Positions 36,501 to 61,440 of a stretch of 64,000 nucleotides of DNA are shown in pieces; position 1 is the first letter of the stretch, and every line of letters begins with the position of its first letter. Position numbers and translations under genes: made by a program. The notes below the pieces were generated by a model. That model did not search any database, was not told the origin of the DNA, and saw only the letters and a program-made list of their open reading frames with translations. Location of the stretch: IMG/VR virus record IMGVR_UViG_3300044625_001067, positions 159,473-223,472 of that record. The stretch is one strand, 5' to 3'. Source of the stretch: a virus.

Positions 36501-36544
36501 AGCCCCCTAACCGGGGCTTTTTTTTTTTTTTTTTTTTTTTTTTT
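36501..36544 (+). terminator. Rho-independent terminator with T27 tract
   Basis: AGCCCC (36501-36506), short loop, GGGGCT (36513-36518), then 27 consecutive T (36518-36544). The tract is far longer than a terminator needs. Confidence 0.9.
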
Positions 36545-36556
36545 GTGCCTACAAGA

Positions 36557-45555: not shown

Positions 45556-45603
45556 TAAAAAGATGGGGTGAAAACACTCCCTGAAATTTTCACAACATCA
45601 GAC

Positions 45604-45772
45604 ATGAATAAACTCGACCACTGTTACCTCGAAGCCCTTTCTGAAGCACTGAAAGGTAACCTTGGAGAGGCTTTAGAACTCCGCAATGAAGCGGATGCGT
45701 TAGCATCCGAAGGCTTCTCCTTCTCCGAAAATTACGGGAATAAATACCCGTTCATTGAAGAGGCTGTAAATA
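45604..45772. repeat. Dispersed repeat, copy 2 (leader module)
   Basis: About 170 bp nearly identical to 8220-8388 and 59186-59354; identity fades before the Cys-motif codons. Confidence 0.8.
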
Positions 45773-46215
45773 CCCTGATTAATTCGTACGAATTCACACG
45801 CTGCGTAAAACCGTCCGGTGAAGCGTACGGAACAGCGGGGCAGTGTAGAAAAGGAACTGAAGAAGCTAAACTGGTAAAGGCGACTTCTCCCACCAGGCGA
45901 ACCAAGGTAGAAAGAGACATGGCTGCCCAATCCACTCTCAAAAGACTCGCAGCCAAAGGTCCGGATACTTCCGTAAGAAAGCAGGGTAACAGGGTAGTGG
46001 TCAGTAAGGGGTCTGAGTTCAAGGCTGTTCTACACCCCGAGCACCAGACTGCCCTTGGAAAGTTAAAGGAGGGGGAAAGGTTCAAATTTGAGGACGAAAG
46101 TGGCACCCATTGGTCGGCGACACGGTCCGGAAATAGTATACGCTTAGAGGGGGGAGATACAAGGCATGGCAGCAAACCTTACAAAATGTCAATGGGTAGG
46201 GACAAACTGATGTGA
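45604..46215 (+). CDS. MNKLDH-leader protein, copy 2 (203 aa)
   Basis: Same ~80-residue leader as the genes at 8220 and 59186; DNA near-identity extends over the first ~170 bp. The Cys motif is slightly changed (TRCVKPSGEAYGTAGQCRKG). The C-terminal ~110 residues are unique: basic N-part, then a compact beta-rich domain (GNRVVVSKGSEFKAVLHPEHQ, HWSATRSGNSIRLEG). Here the gene is embedded among tail genes, under a late-type motif. A start GTG at 45568 is possible but does not align with the paralogues. Confidence 0.7.
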   Translation: MNKLDHCYLEALSEALKGNLGEALELRNEADALASEGFSFSENYGNKYPFIEEAVNTLINSYEFTRCVKPSGEAYGTAGQCRKGTEEAKLVKATSPTRRTKVERDMAAQSTLKRLAAKGPDTSVRKQGNRVVVSKGSEFKAVLHPEHQTALGKLKEGERFKFEDESGTHWSATRSGNSIRLEGGDTRHGSKPYKMSMGRDKLM

Positions 46216-49055: not shown

Positions 49056-50819
49056 ATGAACTTTCGCACCCCGTCTATAACGCACGCTTCTCAGCTAGAG
49101 GAAAAATCCCGGTGGAGAAAATATACGAAAGGTATTCGAGAGCTTGAACTTCTTGAAGCACCTCGATCTGTAATTCAGGAGTTCAGGTTTAAGGCTGCCC
49201 GAGATTGTTTCCTGGCCTTTTGTGACATTATGAAAAATGGGGACTTAAACGTTTCCCCCTTTCACGAGATCATCGCAAGTGCCTTTGAGGATCTTTACGA
49301 ACGTCGATACAATCGTCTTATTATATCCTGCCCACCACGTTCAGGGAAGTCAATGCTTTCCACTATGTTTTTAGCGTGGTTGCTCGGAAAAGACGAAAGA
49401 ACTCAGCACATCTTGGCTTCCTACGGGGCTTCTTTATCTCAAAAGTTTCACAGAGAAGCTGTCGTAATGATGAAGACCCCTTCATTTAGGAAGGTCTTTC
49501 CTGAATTTTCAGGGTTTAACCGTGACTCGAAATATGACTTAGTCGGGGGTGGTTATGTACTTGCGACGTCCGTTGGAGGTATTCTCACTGGTTTCACGTC
49601 TGGAACCATAGACATGGAATCCACGGGTATTGGTGCGGCACTAATTGACGACCCCCTGAAATCGTCTGACTCTAAAGCAGCGCTGGACAACTTAGAAAGT
49701 TGGTGGGCAGAGCAAATGTCCACACGAAGGACAAATCACTACGCCCAAGTCATTATAGCAACCCGTTTTCATGAAAAAGACCTTCATGGGGTCTTAATGG
49801 ACGGTGATGGTTTATATGACCCTGAAGATAATCCTTTCGGATGGAGGTGGATAAACATAGCAGGGCTCTGTGAGGACCCTGACAATGATCCTCTAGGTAG
49901 AGAGATGGGAGAGAGCCACTGGCCCGACAACCCAGCCTTCTCTGTTCCGATGCTTGAGTCCCAGAAAAAGATAATGGGTAGCTTTAAGTTCGCAGCTCTT
50001 TACCAAGGGGTTCCTGTATCGGCTGAGGGACAGATTGTAAAGAATAGCTGGGTGGAGGTGATTGGGGAAGAAGACTGCCCCCCCTTGGACGTTGTATGGT
50101 TTGGAGTTGACTGCGCTTTCTCCGAGCGAGAGAAAGCTGATGAGAGCGCAATATGCGTCGCTGGTATAAACACTCGTAACCCAGATACTGTTTACATTCG
50201 TGAGATTGTTAAGGGTAAGTGGGGCTTTCCTGACTTGATTGACTCGGTAAAGCAGCATTACGCTCTGTATAACGCAAAAGTTCTGTGCATTGAAAAAGCA
50301 GCATCGGGGCACTCTCTCATTCAAATGCTGAAGCGAGAGGCTAAGATACCTATCGAGGAAATGAGGCCGCTGAAGTCAAAGACGACTCGCCTTCAGGCAG
50401 TCTGCCCTTTACTCGAAAACCACCGAGTTATACTGGTGCGGGGCCTGTGGACTGACGCGTTCGTAAAGGAACTAACTTCTTTCCCGTATGTTCGCCACGA
50501 CGATAGTACTGACGCCATGGTGTGGGCGCTGACTTACTACTCGCTCAAAATTGACTCCGTTGACCGGGGTATACAAGACTCGATAATTCAGAGTCGAAAA
50601 TGGGCTGGTGACCTACGCAGACCAATGTTTCGGGATGGTCACTCTTACGGTGGGCTTTTCGAAGAGCGAAATGTGTCGGTCGGGGGCCGAAGAGCTCCCC
50701 GCAGTATGGGCTTCAACGACCCTGATCCTAAGTCTGCCGAGGTACCTGATAGGGGCATTTTCCGAGGTGGCCGCAGCCGAGGTCTTCGAAGTGTATCCGG
50801 CTACGACCTTTTTAATTAA
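49056..50819 (+). CDS. terL: Terminase large subunit (intact copy)
   Basis: A 587-residue packaging motor. Walker A is CPPRSGKSM near residues 92-99; a Walker B-like GAALIDDPLKS near 195; then the nuclease domain with VVWFGVDCAF (first Asp), KVLCIEKAASG (Glu) and DDSTDAMVWAL (last Asp). The ATPase translocates DNA through the portal and the nuclease cuts it. It starts with ITHASQLEEKSRWRKY, almost the same as the following gene (ITHASQLAEHSSWRSY), showing the two are paralogues. The last ~90 residues are Arg/Gly-rich and absent from the second copy. Confidence 0.9.
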   Translation: MNFRTPSITHASQLEEKSRWRKYTKGIRELELLEAPRSVIQEFRFKAARDCFLAFCDIMKNGDLNVSPFHEIIASAFEDLYERRYNRLIISCPPRSGKSMLSTMFLAWLLGKDERTQHILASYGASLSQKFHREAVVMMKTPSFRKVFPEFSGFNRDSKYDLVGGGYVLATSVGGILTGFTSGTIDMESTGIGAALIDDPLKSSDSKAALDNLESWWAEQMSTRRTNHYAQVIIATRFHEKDLHGVLMDGDGLYDPEDNPFGWRWINIAGLCEDPDNDPLGREMGESHWPDNPAFSVPMLESQKKIMGSFKFAALYQGVPVSAEGQIVKNSWVEVIGEEDCPPLDVVWFGVDCAFSEREKADESAICVAGINTRNPDTVYIREIVKGKWGFPDLIDSVKQHYALYNAKVLCIEKAASGHSLIQMLKREAKIPIEEMRPLKSKTTRLQAVCPLLENHRVILVRGLWTDAFVKELTSFPYVRHDDSTDAMVWALTYYSLKIDSVDRGIQDSIIQSRKWAGDLRRPMFRDGHSYGGLFEERNVSVGGRRAPRSMGFNDPDPKSAEVPDRGIFRGGRSRGLRSVSGYDLFN

Positions 50820-50852: not shown

Positions 50853-51830
50853 ATGTCACTTAAACACCAAAAAATAACGCACGCTTCTCAACTAGCAGAG
50901 CACTCAAGCTGGAGGAGCTACCGACGAAAACTCCTTGAACTGAAACTTGAGGGGTTTCCTCAAGAGGCTTACGCTAAGGAAAGTGCAAAAAATAGCTTTC
51001 TTGCTTTCTGCGATCTTGTCTCCGATGCAGGAGGTTTCGCACTCGAAAACGCACCGCTCGATGCAAAAGCATACGAAGTGATAGGGTCCGCCTTTGAGGA
51101 CATTTCCGAAGGAAGGTACCCAATTCTCCTCGCGTCGATGCCTCCCCGCACAGGGAAAACCACTCTAGGGGTTCACTTGCTGTCCTGGCTCCTTAGCAAA
51201 GACCCCATTGCTAACCACTTTGTAACCTCGTACACACAGAATCTGGCCGCGTCGGTAGTTCACAAGACTAAGCATTTGGTTCAGTCCCCTCCGTTCCGGA
51301 CGTACTCCTCTGTGGTTCCCCCACTTGCATCGTTTCATGTTTTACCAGTCTCCTTTGGGGGGTCTGTGTGCGGGGACTATTACGGTAGCTTATACGAAAC
51401 GCCAGGCGTATGGCTAATCGACGACTGCCACGACGGTGTTTCGGACGGAAGTGTCAACGAGAAACAGATACGCGAGATAGGAGACCATTACGTAGGCAAA
51501 AATGCAATAGTCGTTCTCGGGTCTCGAAGAGGTGAGGGAGATATTTTCAGCTACTTTCTGGAAAAGTACGGTGTCTTTGACCCAGTCTCAAACCCGAACG
51601 GAGCCGTTCACATTAACTTATCCGCCATCATTGAGAGCGAAGAAGAAGCCAAGGTTGATATTCTCGGTAGGAAAGTTGGGCAGGGTATCAATGACGCTAA
51701 CTCCACATTTAGCCCGAAGAATCTTCAGGACTTGCGGAAAACAATAGGGGATGTAAAGTTCTCGTGGTTGTACAAAGGGGTGCTCTCCACTGGGTTCGGA
51801 GTCTGCTCCGAGGTACCCCCCTCTAGATAA
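50853..51830 (+). CDS. Second terminase large-subunit-like gene, ATPase part
   Basis: A 325-residue frame starting 34 nt after the intact terL. It has its own Walker A (MPPRTGKTT) and Walker B-like GVWLIDDCHDG, and shares the terL N-terminal motif and FLAFCD. It terminates at TAA 51828-51830 just after a C6 run. The nuclease half continues in the +1 frame (51877-52272). Read with one base skipped at the C run, GAG GTA CCC CCT CTA joins EV-P-P-L-D, matching terL's CPPLDVVW. Either a frameshifted relic, a programmed +1 shift, or a sequence error. Confidence 0.75.
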   Translation: MSLKHQKITHASQLAEHSSWRSYRRKLLELKLEGFPQEAYAKESAKNSFLAFCDLVSDAGGFALENAPLDAKAYEVIGSAFEDISEGRYPILLASMPPRTGKTTLGVHLLSWLLSKDPIANHFVTSYTQNLAASVVHKTKHLVQSPPFRTYSSVVPPLASFHVLPVSFGGSVCGDYYGSLYETPGVWLIDDCHDGVSDGSVNEKQIREIGDHYVGKNAIVVLGSRRGEGDIFSYFLEKYGVFDPVSNPNGAVHINLSAIIESEEEAKVDILGRKVGQGINDANSTFSPKNLQDLRKTIGDVKFSWLYKGVLSTGFGVCSEVPPSR

Positions 51831-51876
51831 GGTCATTATCTCTATTGACCCCTCTTGCTCGCCAGGCAACGCGGAT

Positions 51877-52272
51877 ATGACTGGAATTTGTGTGGCTGGA
51901 TCCACGAAGGAAAAGGACTGTGTGTACGTTCTCGACGCGTACCAGGCGAATTGGGACTTGGAGACTGTTGGCGTAATTGTTTTTCTAGCCGCTAAAGCCT
52001 ACAGTGTTACAGAAGTTGTTATCGAGTCGTCCATGGCGAGTGAGCACTGGAGACAGTACCTAGAGAAGCTAGGTTTACCTGTTCGAGTGAGCAAGGAGAG
52101 AGTGGTGGCTAAGGCACTTGCGACCAATCTAATGGTAAAGTCGGGGAAAGTAGCATCCAACCCAGATATACACAACGTGTTGTTTAAAAGTTGGGACTGC
52201 ATTGGATCGTACTCAGATATAATGGATGCTATTTTGGTTAGCTTCATGGAACTGCTTCCACCTGCTGTTTAA
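51877..52272 (+). CDS. Second terminase-like gene, nuclease part (+1 frame)
   Basis: Homology begins upstream of this ATG, at about 51820 (PPLDKVIISIDPSCSPGN), so the first catalytic Asp is encoded before 51877. All three acidic sites are kept: SIDPS, VVIESS and DIMDAILVSF. The fused product would be about 472 residues. Retention of both ATPase and nuclease residues argues against long-standing decay. Confidence 0.7.
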   Translation: MTGICVAGSTKEKDCVYVLDAYQANWDLETVGVIVFLAAKAYSVTEVVIESSMASEHWRQYLEKLGLPVRVSKERVVAKALATNLMVKSGKVASNPDIHNVLFKSWDCIGSYSDIMDAILVSFMELLPPAV

Positions 52273-52334: not shown

Positions 52335-52487
52335 ATGGCTATTTCACCAACTGATAAAAACACTGCAATAATGCAGGAGCTACACGGGACTCGTTGTCTC
52401 ATCACAAGTCCTTCCTCGGACAAGTACCTTCGTCAAGCGAAGACGCGAAAAGAGTACCCGATTCCCGAAGACTCCTACTCTCGGTGA
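52335..52487 (+). CDS. Small hypothetical protein (50 aa)
   Basis: ATG at 52335, TGA at 52485-52487. Basic, soluble (MAISPTDKNTAIMQELHGTR...; ends EYPIPEDSYSR). It has no obvious RBS. It lies in the otherwise gene-free stretch between terminase and PhoH. The putative structured RNA starts at its stop. Confidence 0.4.
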   Translation: MAISPTDKNTAIMQELHGTRCLITSPSSDKYLRQAKTRKEYPIPEDSYSR

Positions 52488-52713: not shown

Positions 52714-53436
52714 ATGTTGAAAAGTCGAGACAAGCGCAAGTCACGTCGCGCTGAAACAGCTCAAACGGTTGAACGTTCCTATGGCCGGGGTATGGATGTC
52801 ATGCCCTTCTACTCAAAGTCTGACCGCCAAGAAGATCTTTGGACTTCTTTGAATAAAAATACAGTTACCATAGCTATTGGACCGTCCGGAGTTGGGAAAA
52901 CTCTTGTGGCCCTGTGGTGGGGTTTGACTGAGATTTCAAAGGGTAATATACAGAAAGTTTACTACATTCGAAGTGATGTAGGATGCTCTCATCAAAGAAG
53001 TAGGGGTGCCTTGCCTGGAACGCTTGAGGAAAAGATGAAACCTCTTGTTGGACCAGTATACGACAATTTGGTTGTAATGACTAAGAGTAGGGGGGCTGCT
53101 GACTACTTGGTTGATAAGAAAATTGTAGAGCCCACTCTTCTAGAGGACTTACGGGGAAGATCGCTAAATGAGTGTCTGATTCTTTTTGATGAGGCTCAGA
53201 ACTCTATGCCCGAAAACGTCAAAACCGTCATTAGTAGGGTTGGAAAAGATTCAAAAGTTATCATTACAGGGGACACTAGACAAATTGACCTCGATGTGTT
53301 TAAACCTGAAAACGGACTCTTAGACTGCTACCATCGACTTTCCTCCATTAGGGGTGTAGGGAGAGTTAAGTTTGAAAGAGAGGATATTGTAAGAAATGGA
53401 ATTATAGCTGAAATCTTGGAGGCTTACGAGGCTTAG
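52714..53436 (+). CDS. phoH: PhoH-like ATPase
   Basis: A 240-residue PhoH-family P-loop protein: Walker A GPSGVGKT near residues 53-60, YYIRSDVGCSHQRSRGALPGTLEEKM, Walker B LILFDEAQNS and sensor-like VIITGDTRQIDLD. All key residues are present. PhoH is frequent in cyanophages; its role is not settled (RNA- or phosphate-stress-linked ATPase/helicase). Followed by a terminator, so it is a single-gene unit. Confidence 0.88.
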   Translation: MLKSRDKRKSRRAETAQTVERSYGRGMDVMPFYSKSDRQEDLWTSLNKNTVTIAIGPSGVGKTLVALWWGLTEISKGNIQKVYYIRSDVGCSHQRSRGALPGTLEEKMKPLVGPVYDNLVVMTKSRGAADYLVDKKIVEPTLLEDLRGRSLNECLILFDEAQNSMPENVKTVISRVGKDSKVIITGDTRQIDLDVFKPENGLLDCYHRLSSIRGVGRVKFEREDIVRNGIIAEILEAYEA

Positions 53437-54950: not shown

Positions 54951-55631
54951 GTGGGTAACCCTAGGAAAAAATGCACAGCAGGAAAGTCTTGCTCGGCAAC
55001 TTGCATAAGCAAGGGGTTTAAATGCAAGAAAAAGTTGCCGTCACCAGTTAGCGACAGTCTCACACGTAACAGTGAGAAGTTGTTGCACCTTGGTGAGCAT
55101 GTTGGGGCCAACGTGACGTCTTGGAAAGTTGGGAAAGTTGTTGGCCCCCTGGTATCAAAGTACCTGGAAACTCGCTACGGCATACCACCGGAAACCACAG
55201 AAAAGCTGTCGGAAACTATTGTTCAAGCGGTGGTTGCCACGGGACTTCACTCTCGACATTTAAGGTCGAGTGAGGACTTTGTAAGAGACCTACTCACAGA
55301 AGCTTCTGCCGCGTTCCTGGGGAAAAGTGCCCACACAGGTGTGGAAAGTTTCCTAACCCACCAGGAAAGTCGCGAGATTGTCCAACAAGCTTTGCCCCTA
55401 CTTGCAGGAAAGTTCACCGGAATTGGTGCAGCTTTTGCAGGGTCAAAACTTCCCAAAGTGGCCCAAATTTCGGGCGCCATATCACGAAAGTACAACTCCG
55501 ACCTTTTGAAGCTACAGAGGCTATTCAGAAGATCTGAAGCTTCATTTTCTGAGCAAACCAACCAGGTAACCTCAGCTAAGCTTCTCGGAGACCTTTCTCT
55601 TCTCTCGGTTTTACTGTCCTTGAACGGGTAA
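54951..55631 (+). CDS. Cys-motif (CxxGKSC) protein (226 aa)
   Basis: GTG start. The N-terminus carries KKCTAGKSCSATCISKGFKC, matching the start of the kinase-like protein at 60178 (KRCTKGKSCGGTCISREAKC). The rest is helical with small-residue-rich segments (LPLLAGKFTGIGAAFAGSKL) that could associate with membranes. The shared leader suggests a common tag or metal-binding knuckle on different bodies. Function unknown. Confidence 0.6.
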   Translation: MGNPRKKCTAGKSCSATCISKGFKCKKKLPSPVSDSLTRNSEKLLHLGEHVGANVTSWKVGKVVGPLVSKYLETRYGIPPETTEKLSETIVQAVVATGLHSRHLRSSEDFVRDLLTEASAAFLGKSAHTGVESFLTHQESREIVQQALPLLAGKFTGIGAAFAGSKLPKVAQISGAISRKYNSDLLKLQRLFRRSEASFSEQTNQVTSAKLLGDLSLLSVLLSLNG

Positions 55632-59108: not shown

Positions 59109-59185
59109 TCCTTATACTCGCCCTACGGAAACCAACCGTTAAACGATAAGATGTACTCGCTTCCACAATTTTCTCACTGTCAACC

Positions 59186-59442
59186 ATGAACAAACTCGAC
59201 CATTGTTACCTCGAAGCCCTTTCAGAAGCACTGAAAGGTAACTTAGGCGAAGCTTTAGAACTCCGCAACGAAGCGGATGCGTTAGCATCCGAAGGTTTCT
59301 CCTTCTCTGAGGACTACGGGAGTAAATACCCATTCATTGAAGAAGCTGTAAACACTTTACTTGATTCGTACGAATTCACTCGATGCGTCCGAGCCGACGG
59401 CTCGGCCTATGGTACACGCGGGAAGTGTAAGAAGGGCACAGA
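59186..59442. repeat. Dispersed repeat, copy 3 (leader module)
   Basis: About 255 bp nearly identical to 8220-8478, including the stretch CGAGCCGACGGCTCGGCC, and for its first ~170 bp to 45604-45772. Confidence 0.85.
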
Positions 59443-59557
59443 GGCTGGAGCGGCTGACCAGAGGGGTGTAGGTAAGAAGGGTTCCATTAAGGAAAGAAAG
59501 GTAGCACGACTTTACGAAGCCCTTAAAGAAAAGAAACTTACGAGTAACGCGACCTAG
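59186..59557 (+). CDS. MNKLDH-leader protein, copy 3 (123 aa to amber stop)
   Basis: Same leader as at 8220 and 45604, with TRCVRADGSAYGTRGKCKKG identical to copy 1. The frame ends at TAG 59555-59557 after a short Lys-rich helix (KVARLYEALKEKKLTSNAT). The same frame stays open beyond the TAG, through the gene at 59564, to 60172. So this may be one ~328-codon gene interrupted by an amber codon. No GGGTAAA motif was found directly upstream; GTTAAACGATAAGA at 59140 is the nearest A-rich element. Confidence 0.7.
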   Translation: MNKLDHCYLEALSEALKGNLGEALELRNEADALASEGFSFSEDYGSKYPFIEEAVNTLLDSYEFTRCVRADGSAYGTRGKCKKGTEAGAADQRGVGKKGSIKERKVARLYEALKEKKLTSNAT

Positions 59558-59563
59558 CGATTA

Positions 59564-60172
59564 ATGAGACAGATGCTTGACACTCCAGAAGTTAAGAGCC
59601 AGTTTTCAAGTCTAGAAAAGAAAGGCGACGTGGAAGGGGCGAGAGCCCTTTACTCCAAGATTGAAGCTGAGGCTGGAAAAAGGGCGAGTGCAGGGGAAGG
59701 GAGACTGGCCAAGGGCGACAGTAGGACACCTGCCAGTGCGGACAGGGCTCGTGCGTCAGAGAAAGCAGAAAGCAGAAAGAGTCCGATGAAGTTAGGGAAA
59801 GAACAGCCACAGGCCGGGAAAGACATATCACCACGAAGAAGAAAAACTACAGCAGAGTATAAGGCAGTAGCGGTACAACTATTTGATCTTTATAAAATTG
59901 CTCAGCGAAAAGAGCGAGAAGCGGAAAAGGCACTAAAAAGCGTTGAGAAAGAAACCAAAGGCGACAATAGTCGTGAAGCGAGGCTAAAACGCTCTACTGC
60001 AGAGAAAGCTTTAATGAAGGCGTACTCAAGTGGAGAAAGAGCTATGAAGGCTGAACTCAAAGCAAACTCATCCTATATGAAATCACTCAAGAAGGACGTA
60101 CGAGCTAAGATGAGTCCCCAACAAAAGGCCGCTGAAAAGGAGATTGATAAAATAATACAGGAACGAGGTTGA
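59564..60172 (+). CDS. Basic helical protein in frame after amber stop (202 aa)
   Basis: ATG at 59564, 6 nt after the TAG of copy 3 and in the same reading frame, without a Shine-Dalgarno. Lys/Ala/Glu-rich, helical (LFDLYKIAQRKEREAEKALKS...). Production may need stop-codon readthrough or re-initiation. No family recognised. It overlaps the kinase-like gene region only at the TTG alternative start. Confidence 0.55.
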   Translation: MRQMLDTPEVKSQFSSLEKKGDVEGARALYSKIEAEAGKRASAGEGRLAKGDSRTPASADRARASEKAESRKSPMKLGKEQPQAGKDISPRRRKTTAEYKAVAVQLFDLYKIAQRKEREAEKALKSVEKETKGDNSREARLKRSTAEKALMKAYSSGERAMKAELKANSSYMKSLKKDVRAKMSPQQKAAEKEIDKIIQERG

Positions 60173-60177
60173 GTCTA

Positions 60178-61440
60178 GTGAAACGCTGCACCAAGGGAAA
60201 GAGCTGTGGAGGTACCTGCATTAGCCGCGAGGCTAAGTGCAGAGCCTCCTTGACCCCCAAACTATCCCACCAAGTAGAAAACTTACAGGGATCATTAGCA
60301 GGCAAAGTTGCTAAGAGTGGCGAGACAAACCCGCTGGTCAAGGACCTTATTGAGGCGTTAGCGTCCAACTCAAAGGTCAGGGTGGGTAATGACTTCCCAT
60401 CGTTAAAGCGGGAGGCAGAGCGCCAGCTTGCTGAGCTGCGCAGTAAAGAGTATATGACGGACGAGGAAATAAATAGGGCCACGAAAGTTGAAAAGGCACT
60501 CTTTGACACATGGGCCAAGCACACCAGGGCGGATCGCCCAGCTATTCAAGAACGTCAAAATGCACTCGAATTCGACTCCGAGTTTACACCAACCCTAAAG
60601 TTAGGGGGTAGCTACGACTGGAAACAGTCGTACGAATCAGGATCAAAGGGGTTAGGATCAGGTTTGTACGGAGCGGTAATTGCATCCAAACCACCCCCGT
60701 CCGTAGTCGTGAAAAGGGGGGAGGTGGGGGAAAATGAAGTGAGAATTCTTGAGAAATTAAGTGGAAAGGATATCACCCCCAGGCTAATCTCGGCTGAGAT
60801 GAATAAATCTGCTGAGTTCAACAACGCTGGGTACTACCCTGGAAGAATAGCAATGTCCCGTGTAAGGGGTAAGCCGGCTGAAGACTTTGAATCCTACGAA
60901 AGCCCAGTCGGAAGCACAACTGTGGGAGACTCTTACTACGCTCTACGAAAGAAGCTCCATGAGCAAGGTGTTGCCCATAATGACGCCCACGTAGGAAACG
61001 TAATTATCGATGACAAGGGGAAAGCACGTTTTGTTGACTTCGGTGTTTCACAGGATGACCCTCGTGCAGCTCTCTCAGAGGCCATTGGAGTTTTATCGGT
61101 GAGGTACTTACTACCCCCTGGTGCAATGCTCAGAAAGCCACTCAATGAAAACTCAGGGGATTTTCAGGCACGAGACAACAAGCAGTTTTACTTGCCACCA
61201 TCCACTACAGTTACTCCTAAGGGAACTACCCCCAAAACGAACCTTGGGAAGATTATACGAAACCGAATCAAAGTTTACTCCGAGATGGAAAAGCTTGGTC
61301 TTAACAAAGACGATATTGCTGAGGTGGTGACCCACAGTTTAGACCAACCACTTAGCTCTTACAACAAAGGTGCTTGGGGTAAGATCGGCAAAGACGACGC
61401 TGCAAGGCTTATTTCCATACTTTACGAAGGGGTTAGTTAA
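60178..61440 (+). CDS. Protein-kinase-like protein with CxxGKSC leader (420 aa)
   Basis: The GTG at 60178 is preferred to TTG 60169, which overlaps the previous stop. The N-terminus has KRCTKGKSCGGTCISREAKC, as in the gene at 54951. From about residue 157 a kinase fold is visible: glycine loop GLGSGLYGAV, lysine strand SVVVKRG (about K179), ENEVRILEKL helix, catalytic loop AHNDAHVGNVIID (D at about 269, N at about 274) and Mg-binding VDFG (D at about 287). The HxD-x4-N loop and DFG are complete, so activity on protein or a small molecule is possible. The family is closer in feel to RIO/ABC1/Bud32-type kinases than to classical Ser/Thr kinases. Confidence 0.75.
   Translation: MKRCTKGKSCGGTCISREAKCRASLTPKLSHQVENLQGSLAGKVAKSGETNPLVKDLIEALASNSKVRVGNDFPSLKREAERQLAELRSKEYMTDEEINRATKVEKALFDTWAKHTRADRPAIQERQNALEFDSEFTPTLKLGGSYDWKQSYESGSKGLGSGLYGAVIASKPPPSVVVKRGEVGENEVRILEKLSGKDITPRLISAEMNKSAEFNNAGYYPGRIAMSRVRGKPAEDFESYESPVGSTTVGDSYYALRKKLHEQGVAHNDAHVGNVIIDDKGKARFVDFGVSQDDPRAALSEAIGVLSVRYLLPPGAMLRKPLNENSGDFQARDNKQFYLPPSTTVTPKGTTPKTNLGKIIRNRIKVYSEMEKLGLNKDDIAEVVTHSLDQPLSSYNKGAWGKIGKDDAARLISILYEGVS

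What the first reader, a model, noticed from the sequence alone, without database searches (positions are those of the whole stretch)
50853..52272. Second, frameshifted terminase large subunit next to the intact one
Two tandem paralogues share N-terminal motif, Walker A and three nuclease acids. The second is split by a +1 shift exactly at GTACCCCCCTCT; with five instead of six C it would read through into P-P-L-D as in the first copy. Both halves keep their active-site residues, so decay, if any, is recent, or the shift is programmed. A phage with two packaging motors, or a nuclease-split one, would be unusual.
Basis: partly seen in the sequence, partly recalled or inferred. Interest (0 to 1): 0.72.

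Follow-up and report, generated by a model that had tools for sequence, protein, structure and literature searches.

The report
Accessory second terminase, broken here only

Summary
In detail: window 49056-50819 encodes an intact large terminase (TerL1), and 50853-52272 a tandem paralogue (TerL2, 32% identical) split by a +1 shift at a six-C run (51816-51821). The programmed-shift reading fails. All 26 IMG/VR relatives that cover this spot read through in one frame; four have the same DNA with five C, and no other IMG/VR contig holds the six-C version. Among 64 genes compared with a 95%-identical relative, TerL2 is the only one frame-broken. The shift is a private mutation or a sequence error.

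The paralogue itself is the interesting part. It sits between TerL1 and a small gene before PhoH in one clade and is absent from sister lineages and from Synechococcus phage S-CBWM1. It keeps its ATPase motifs but lacks TerL1's hinge stretch and C-terminal tail; one nuclease acid is lost in 14 of 25 complete relatives. It evolves faster than TerL1 under weaker purifying selection, and its ATPase core occurs as swapped allelic cassettes. Two other contigs share a different one-base break near its start. Best reading: an accessory, dispensable terminase-like protein rather than a second packaging motor; its precise role is inferred, not shown.

The parts
49056..50819 (+). TerL1, intact large terminase subunit, 587 aa
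   Evidence: ORF; PHROG 38 E 5e-82; Terminase_6C E 2e-16 and Terminase_6N E 9e-5
50853..51830 (+). TerL2 first half (ATPase part), 325 aa, ends at a premature stop 9 bases after the frame break
   Evidence: 32% identity to TerL1, E 3e-46; PHROG 4758/38
51138..51164 (+). TerL2 Walker A (MPPRTGKTT)
   Evidence: sequence; PPR.GK invariant in TerL1 and TerL2
51204..51512 (+). Allelic cassette of TerL2 between Walker A and motif III
   Evidence: 43-70% DNA identity inside flanks of 99-100% between L036 and L035; cassette dN 0.59 against 0.015 outside, L003 vs L007
51411..51425 (+). TerL2 Walker B (WLIDD)
   Evidence: sequence; IDD invariant in TerL1 and TerL2
51513..51527 (+). TerL2 motif III region (VLGSR, ATR in TerL1)
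   Evidence: sequence; R invariant
51816..51821 (+). Run of six C, the frame break; private to this record
51757..52272 (+). TerL2 second half (RNase H-like nuclease part), +1 frame, homologous from about 51814
   Evidence: Terminase_6C E 2e-4; PHROG 38 E 7e-9
51847..51849 (+). First nuclease acid (D of SIDPS)
   Evidence: invariant in TerL1 and TerL2
52024..52026 (+). Second nuclease acid (E of VIES)
   Evidence: invariant in TerL1 and TerL2
52216..52227 (+). DxxD motif (DIMD); second D is C, Y or S in 14 of 25 complete relatives
52335..52487 (+). Small conserved 50 aa gene that follows TerL2, or TerL1 directly where TerL2 is absent
52714..53436 (+). PhoH-like protein, right-hand synteny anchor
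   Evidence: Pfam PhoH E 8e-50

Best explanation
The second gene is an accessory terminase-like protein that belongs to one clade of large phages, probably of freshwater cyanobacteria. In relatives it is one intact ORF of 465-476 aa with a terminase ATPase domain and an RNase H-like nuclease domain, next to the canonical terminase. In this record alone it is interrupted by a single-base lengthening of a C run, which is a private recent mutation or a sequence error and not a programmed frameshift (shown by comparison; which of the two is not resolved). Most likely it is not a second self-sufficient motor: it keeps ATP-binding residues but lacks TerL1's hinge stretch and C-terminal tail, and often one nuclease acid (shown). 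I infer that it acts beside TerL1 on the same DNA or packaging partners, modulating packaging or interfering with the motors of co-infecting relatives, which would explain its rapid change, cassette swapping and occasional loss.
For: 26 of 26 relatives covering the site are in frame; 4 share the DNA with C5; C6 found nowhere else. Only frame-broken gene among 64 matched against a 95%-identical relative. TerL2 is syntenic between TerL1 and the small gene in 15 of 22 TerL1 loci and absent in 7 more divergent ones and in S-CBWM1. Fold matches are all terminases at the top: PhiV-1 terminase E 5e-12, T4 gp17 E 2e-7, D6E TerL, on a model of modest confidence (pLDDT 62). Purifying selection: dN below dS in all TerL2 pairs where dS could be estimated, outside the cassette ratio about 0.1-0.5, against about 0.02-0.13 in TerL1. 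Cassette exchange. Two contigs (L009/L053, L010) share a one-base A insertion after codon 6 in otherwise nearly identical DNA, so real inactivation seems to occur. Hinge and tail absent, DxxD eroded.
Against: No functional data. The window's allele still has every recognised catalytic residue, so a motor or nuclease role is not excluded. The function-of-the-tail argument rests on general knowledge of terminases, not on a test here. Mosaicism is not confined to TerL2 (PhoH and part of TerL1 are swapped too), so diversification may reflect generally high recombination.
Confidence: 0.6

Rival explanations
1. Sequencing or assembly error: the genome really has the same intact TerL2 as its relatives, and the split is an artefact of the consensus.
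For: C6 seen in no other contig, C5 in four near-identical ones; the record is a metagenome contig; other homopolymer-length differences exist, such as a 27-T run where the relative has 7.
Against: Otherwise no frame-broken gene among 64 comparable ones, so the consensus is clean; two other contigs from different metagenomes carry a different homopolymer break in the same gene, so true breaks do occur.
Confidence: 0.45
2. Programmed +1 frameshift on CCC CCC U producing both a short ATPase-only and a full-length protein.
For: The site is a proline run of the kind on which +1 slippage is known (general knowledge, for example Listeria phage PSA), followed closely by a stop; both halves keep their residues.
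Against: All 26 relatives covering the site are in a single frame, several without any C run (CTCTGAGATCCCACACCTGGAC), so nothing is conserved at the site.
Confidence: 0.03
3. TerL2 is a second full packaging motor or a subunit of a mixed TerL1-TerL2 ring.
For: All ATPase motifs invariant across TerL2; adjacent and same-strand with TerL1; dN/dS below 1.
Against: Lacks the hinge and C-terminal tail; DxxD lost in 14 of 25; evolves far faster than TerL1 at similar dS; broken in the window record and in two other contigs, with TerL1 intact.
Confidence: 0.2
4. TerL2 is a decoy against host sensors that recognise terminase, such as Avs-type proteins, or an interference factor against rival phages.
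For: The best fold match is a terminase bound by Avs3; rapid change and allelic cassettes in the ATPase core fit an arms race.
Against: The fold match only shows that TerL2 is terminase-like; host Avs was not looked for; an intact TerL fold could trigger rather than block the sensor.
Confidence: 0.2
5. TerL2 is a decaying duplicate with no function.
For: Local compensated frame changes (codons 173-175), loss of a nuclease acid in a subfamily, and frame breaks in three contigs including the window.
Against: Open in all other complete relatives, in alleles down to about 52% identity, with dN well below dS.
Confidence: 0.12

Closest known systems
Canonical phage large terminase of PHROG 38 / Pfam Terminase_6 (TerL1 here; Synechococcus phage S-CBWM1 gp103; cyanophage S-TIM5 TerL)
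   Same: ATPase with Walker A/B followed by RNase H-like nuclease; shared N-terminal motif ITHASQL with TerL1 and S-CBWM1; PHROG 38 match E 2e-24 for an intact TerL2
   Different: About 30% identity to TerL1; shorter; no hinge stretch, no C-terminal tail; one nuclease acid lost in a subfamily; weak Pfam scores
Tandem large terminase homologues of RaK2-like jumbo phages (Xanthomonas phage XaC1 ORF353/354, PMC11273794; RaK2 gp110/gp111)
   Same: A terminase paralogue directly adjacent to the working TerL; XaC1 ORF353 is 31% identical to the ATPase part of ORF354, E 1e-19
   Different: That paralogue is upstream, only 239 aa, ATPase part only, with the Walker A lysine replaced (RQAGTTT; RQTGTTT in RaK2). 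TerL2 here is downstream, two-domain, keeps the lysine, and shows no similarity to it
Large terminase split into two genes (Parabacteroides phage phiPDS1, PMC10773633)
   Same: ATPase and nuclease halves annotated as separate reading frames; those authors also raise an assembly problem or a different codon table
   Different: There it is described as the large terminase's two domains split between two CDS; here a separate intact TerL is adjacent, and relatives show the split copy unsplit

Membership tests
Large terminase (PHROG 38 / Terminase_6) | Profile match over ATPase and nuclease | tested here: met
   Intact relative: PHROG 38 E 2e-24 over 33-444; window halves E 1e-11 and 7e-9. Pfam Terminase_6C only at its cut-off
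Large terminase (PHROG 38 / Terminase_6) | Walker A lysine and Walker B acids | tested here: met
   PPR.GK and IDD invariant in 21 aligned TerL1/TerL2 sequences
Large terminase (PHROG 38 / Terminase_6) | RNase H-like nuclease acids D, E, DxxD | tested here: inconclusive
   All present in the window allele and 11 relatives; last D replaced by C, Y or S in 14 of 25 complete relatives; outgroup TerLs have D..DA
Large terminase (PHROG 38 / Terminase_6) | Hinge between domains and C-terminal tail as in TerL1 | tested here: not met
   Both absent in every TerL2 aligned
Large terminase (PHROG 38 / Terminase_6) | Terminase fold | tested here: met
   Foldseek top matches PhiV-1 terminase, T4 gp17, D6E and Sf6 TerL; model pLDDT 62, so a coarse match only
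Large terminase (PHROG 38 / Terminase_6) | DNA packaging into procapsids | not testable with these tools
   needs experiment
Programmed +1 frameshift gene | Split frames and shift site conserved in relatives | tested here: not met
   26 of 26 relatives covering the site in one frame; C6 unique
RaK2/XaC1-type terminase-adjacent ATPase-only paralogue | ATPase-only, Walker A lysine lost, upstream of TerL | tested here: not met

The most novel reading that the evidence does not exclude
A lineage of large cyanophages maintains a second, non-docking terminase whose ATPase core is exchanged as allelic cassettes and which is switched off by homopolymer indels: a dedicated interference or decoy factor built from a packaging motor.
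Probability: 0.2. Interest if true: 0.72.

Novelty: new variant of a known kind. Interest (0 to 1): 0.42.

Why it matters
A tailed phage needs one large terminase, and a maintained full-domain paralogue next to it is rare: with the TerL1 query, 2,410 annotated phage records gave 2,411 places. A fast-evolving paralogue beside a nearly frozen one is a natural experiment in what a packaging motor can be turned into, and could bear on packaging control, competition between co-infecting phages or evasion of terminase-sensing defence. It also shows why a single frame break in a metagenomic contig should be checked in relatives before a programmed shift is proposed.

Tried and rejected
Programmed +1 shift: rejected by 26 in-frame relatives and by absence of C6 elsewhere. 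General poor consensus quality: rejected, 1 frame-broken gene among 64 comparable ones. A phage tRNA that would decode a four-base codon: no tRNA found in the window; the rest of the record was not scanned. Recent duplication of TerL1 inside the carrier clade: disfavoured (AU p 0.014) but long branches are involved; the tree puts TerL2 as sister to all TerL1 including S-CBWM1. TerL2 in bacterial or archaeal genomes: none found. Solved structures by sequence: no terminase hit. Two structure models gave only modest confidence, so active-site geometry was not interpreted. Literature on nuclease residue numbering: nothing held; literature on paired TerL in cyanophages: nothing found.

Full report
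What is in the window. The window is bases 159473-223472 of a 277,244-base IMG/VR virus record. Window 49056-50819 encodes TerL1 (587 aa; PHROG 38 E 5e-82; Terminase_6C and 6N above cut-off). Thirty-three bases downstream, 50853-51830 encodes a 325 aa protein 32% identical to TerL1, and a second frame, open from 51757 to 52272, encodes the nuclease half. The join is GAG GTA CCC CCC TCT AGA TAA, with six C at 51816-51821. The nearest isolate by TerL1 is Synechococcus phage S-CBWM1 (60.5% identity), so the host is probably a picocyanobacterium (inference).

The frame break is private. Searches with each half and with an alignment of intact copies gave 28 IMG/VR contigs with TerL2. Twenty-five have the complete gene and three are cut by contig ends; all 26 that cover the junction are in one frame. 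Four contigs (behind L012-L015) have the same junction DNA with five C; others have quite different DNA there. An exact scan of IMG/VR found the five-C version in those four contigs and the six-C version in none (the window's own record may be left out of such scans). Compared with a 190 kb relative that is 95% identical over 61 kb, 64 genes could be matched and TerL2 was the only one broken by a frame change. So the shift is neither conserved nor part of a generally noisy sequence. It is a private mutation or an isolated consensus error; I cannot tell which without reads.

A second, independent break. Contigs behind L009/L053 and L010, from two different metagenomes, have one extra A in an A run after codon 6 of TerL2. 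L026 (same contig as L009) and L035 differ at only two positions through TerL1 and TerL2: that A and one substitution in TerL1. Because two assemblies agree, this break is likely real; it makes a real break in the window more plausible too and suggests TerL2 is dispensable in some lineages.

Distribution. Of 22 TerL1 loci found, 15 have TerL2 between TerL1 and a 50 aa gene before PhoH; these are the loci with TerL1 at least 84% identical to the window's. Seven with TerL1 at 66-79% go straight from TerL1 to the small gene, as does S-CBWM1. More divergent TerL2 genes (about 51-55% identical) occur in further carriers. No relative was found in 84,980 prokaryote genomes. In a tree, TerL2 is one clade (100/100) on a long stem, sister to all TerL1. 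Holding TerL2 with the carriers' TerL1 as one clade is disfavoured (AU p 0.014), but long-branch effects are possible, so an old duplication, or gain from a related phage, against a recent duplication with acceleration, is open.

Anatomy. Across 21 aligned sequences PPR.GK (Walker A), IDD (Walker B), the first nuclease D, the E and one D of the last motif are invariant. TerL2 lacks about 20 residues of the hinge between domains and the whole C-terminal tail of about 80 residues. The last nuclease motif is DxxDA in all TerL1 aligned and in three of four outgroup terminases checked. It is DxxDA in the window TerL2 and 11 relatives, but DxxCA, DxxYA or DxxSA in 14 of 25 complete relatives. By analogy with RuvC-type nucleases (general knowledge) such a change should weaken the nuclease; this was not tested. 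A model of an intact TerL2 (pLDDT 62) matched terminases first: PhiV-1 terminase (in complex with Avs3) E 5e-12, T4 gp17 E 2e-7, D6E TerL E 2e-6.

Evolution. For L003 against L007, TerL1 has dN 0.004 and dS 0.26, while TerL2 has dN 0.109 and dS 0.20. Most of that lies in a cassette between Walker A and motif III (dN 0.59 inside, 0.015 outside), flanked by 99-100% identical DNA in L036 against L035, the same two contigs: an allelic replacement by recombination. Elsewhere TerL2 dN/dS is about 0.1-0.5, below 1, against about 0.02-0.13 for TerL1. A compensated pair of one-base changes distinguishes codons 173-175 of the window and L003 copies from L012's. So TerL2 is maintained but under weaker constraint, with a core that is exchanged. 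Mosaicism is not confined to TerL2: PhoH and the first half of TerL1 are swapped between carriers too.

Interpretation. Best supported: an accessory terminase-like protein, conserved in a clade, not a stand-alone motor, broken in this record. Shown: paralogy, synteny, intact relatives, loss of tail and hinge, eroded nuclease motif, weaker constraint, cassettes. Inferred: that it acts beside TerL1 as a modulator or interference factor. The closest described arrangement is the pair of tandem large terminase homologues in Xanthomonas phages XaC1 and XbC2 (PMC11273794). In XaC1 I found the first of the pair to be an ATPase-only paralogue of its neighbour, lacking the Walker A lysine, with a similar short gene in RaK2. 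It is not homologous in detail to TerL2, but shows that terminase-adjacent terminase paralogues arise more than once in large phages.

Noticed in passing
window 45585-45860 and 59167-59442: 276 bases repeated at 81% identity: two otherwise different proteins (45568-46215 and 59186-59557) share an N-terminal module SDMNKLDHCYLEALSEALKGNLGEALELRNEADALASEGFSFSE; no Pfam match to either.
   Followed up: partly
window 54951-55631 and 60169-61440: Two proteins begin with the same cysteine motif, KKCTAGKSCSATCISKGFKCKKK and KRCTKGKSCGGTCISREAKC; the second continues as a kinase-like protein.
   Followed up: no
window about 36522-36548: A run of 27 T where a 95%-identical relative has 7; possibly a consensus artefact or a length-variable site.
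   Followed up: no
L035 8664-9380 and L036 8672-9388: PhoH-like gene of a clearly different allele (59% identity to the window's) in genomes whose TerL1 is 98% identical; other carriers have 99%.
   Followed up: partly
L026 and L010, start of TerL2: One extra A after codon 6 breaks TerL2 near its start in two contigs from different metagenomes.
   Followed up: yes
L075 1856-2575 (Xanthomonas phage XaC1 ORF353) and L088 1786-2466 (RaK2 gp110): Terminase ATPase-only paralogues without the Walker A lysine, overlapping the start of the real TerL gene.
   Followed up: partly
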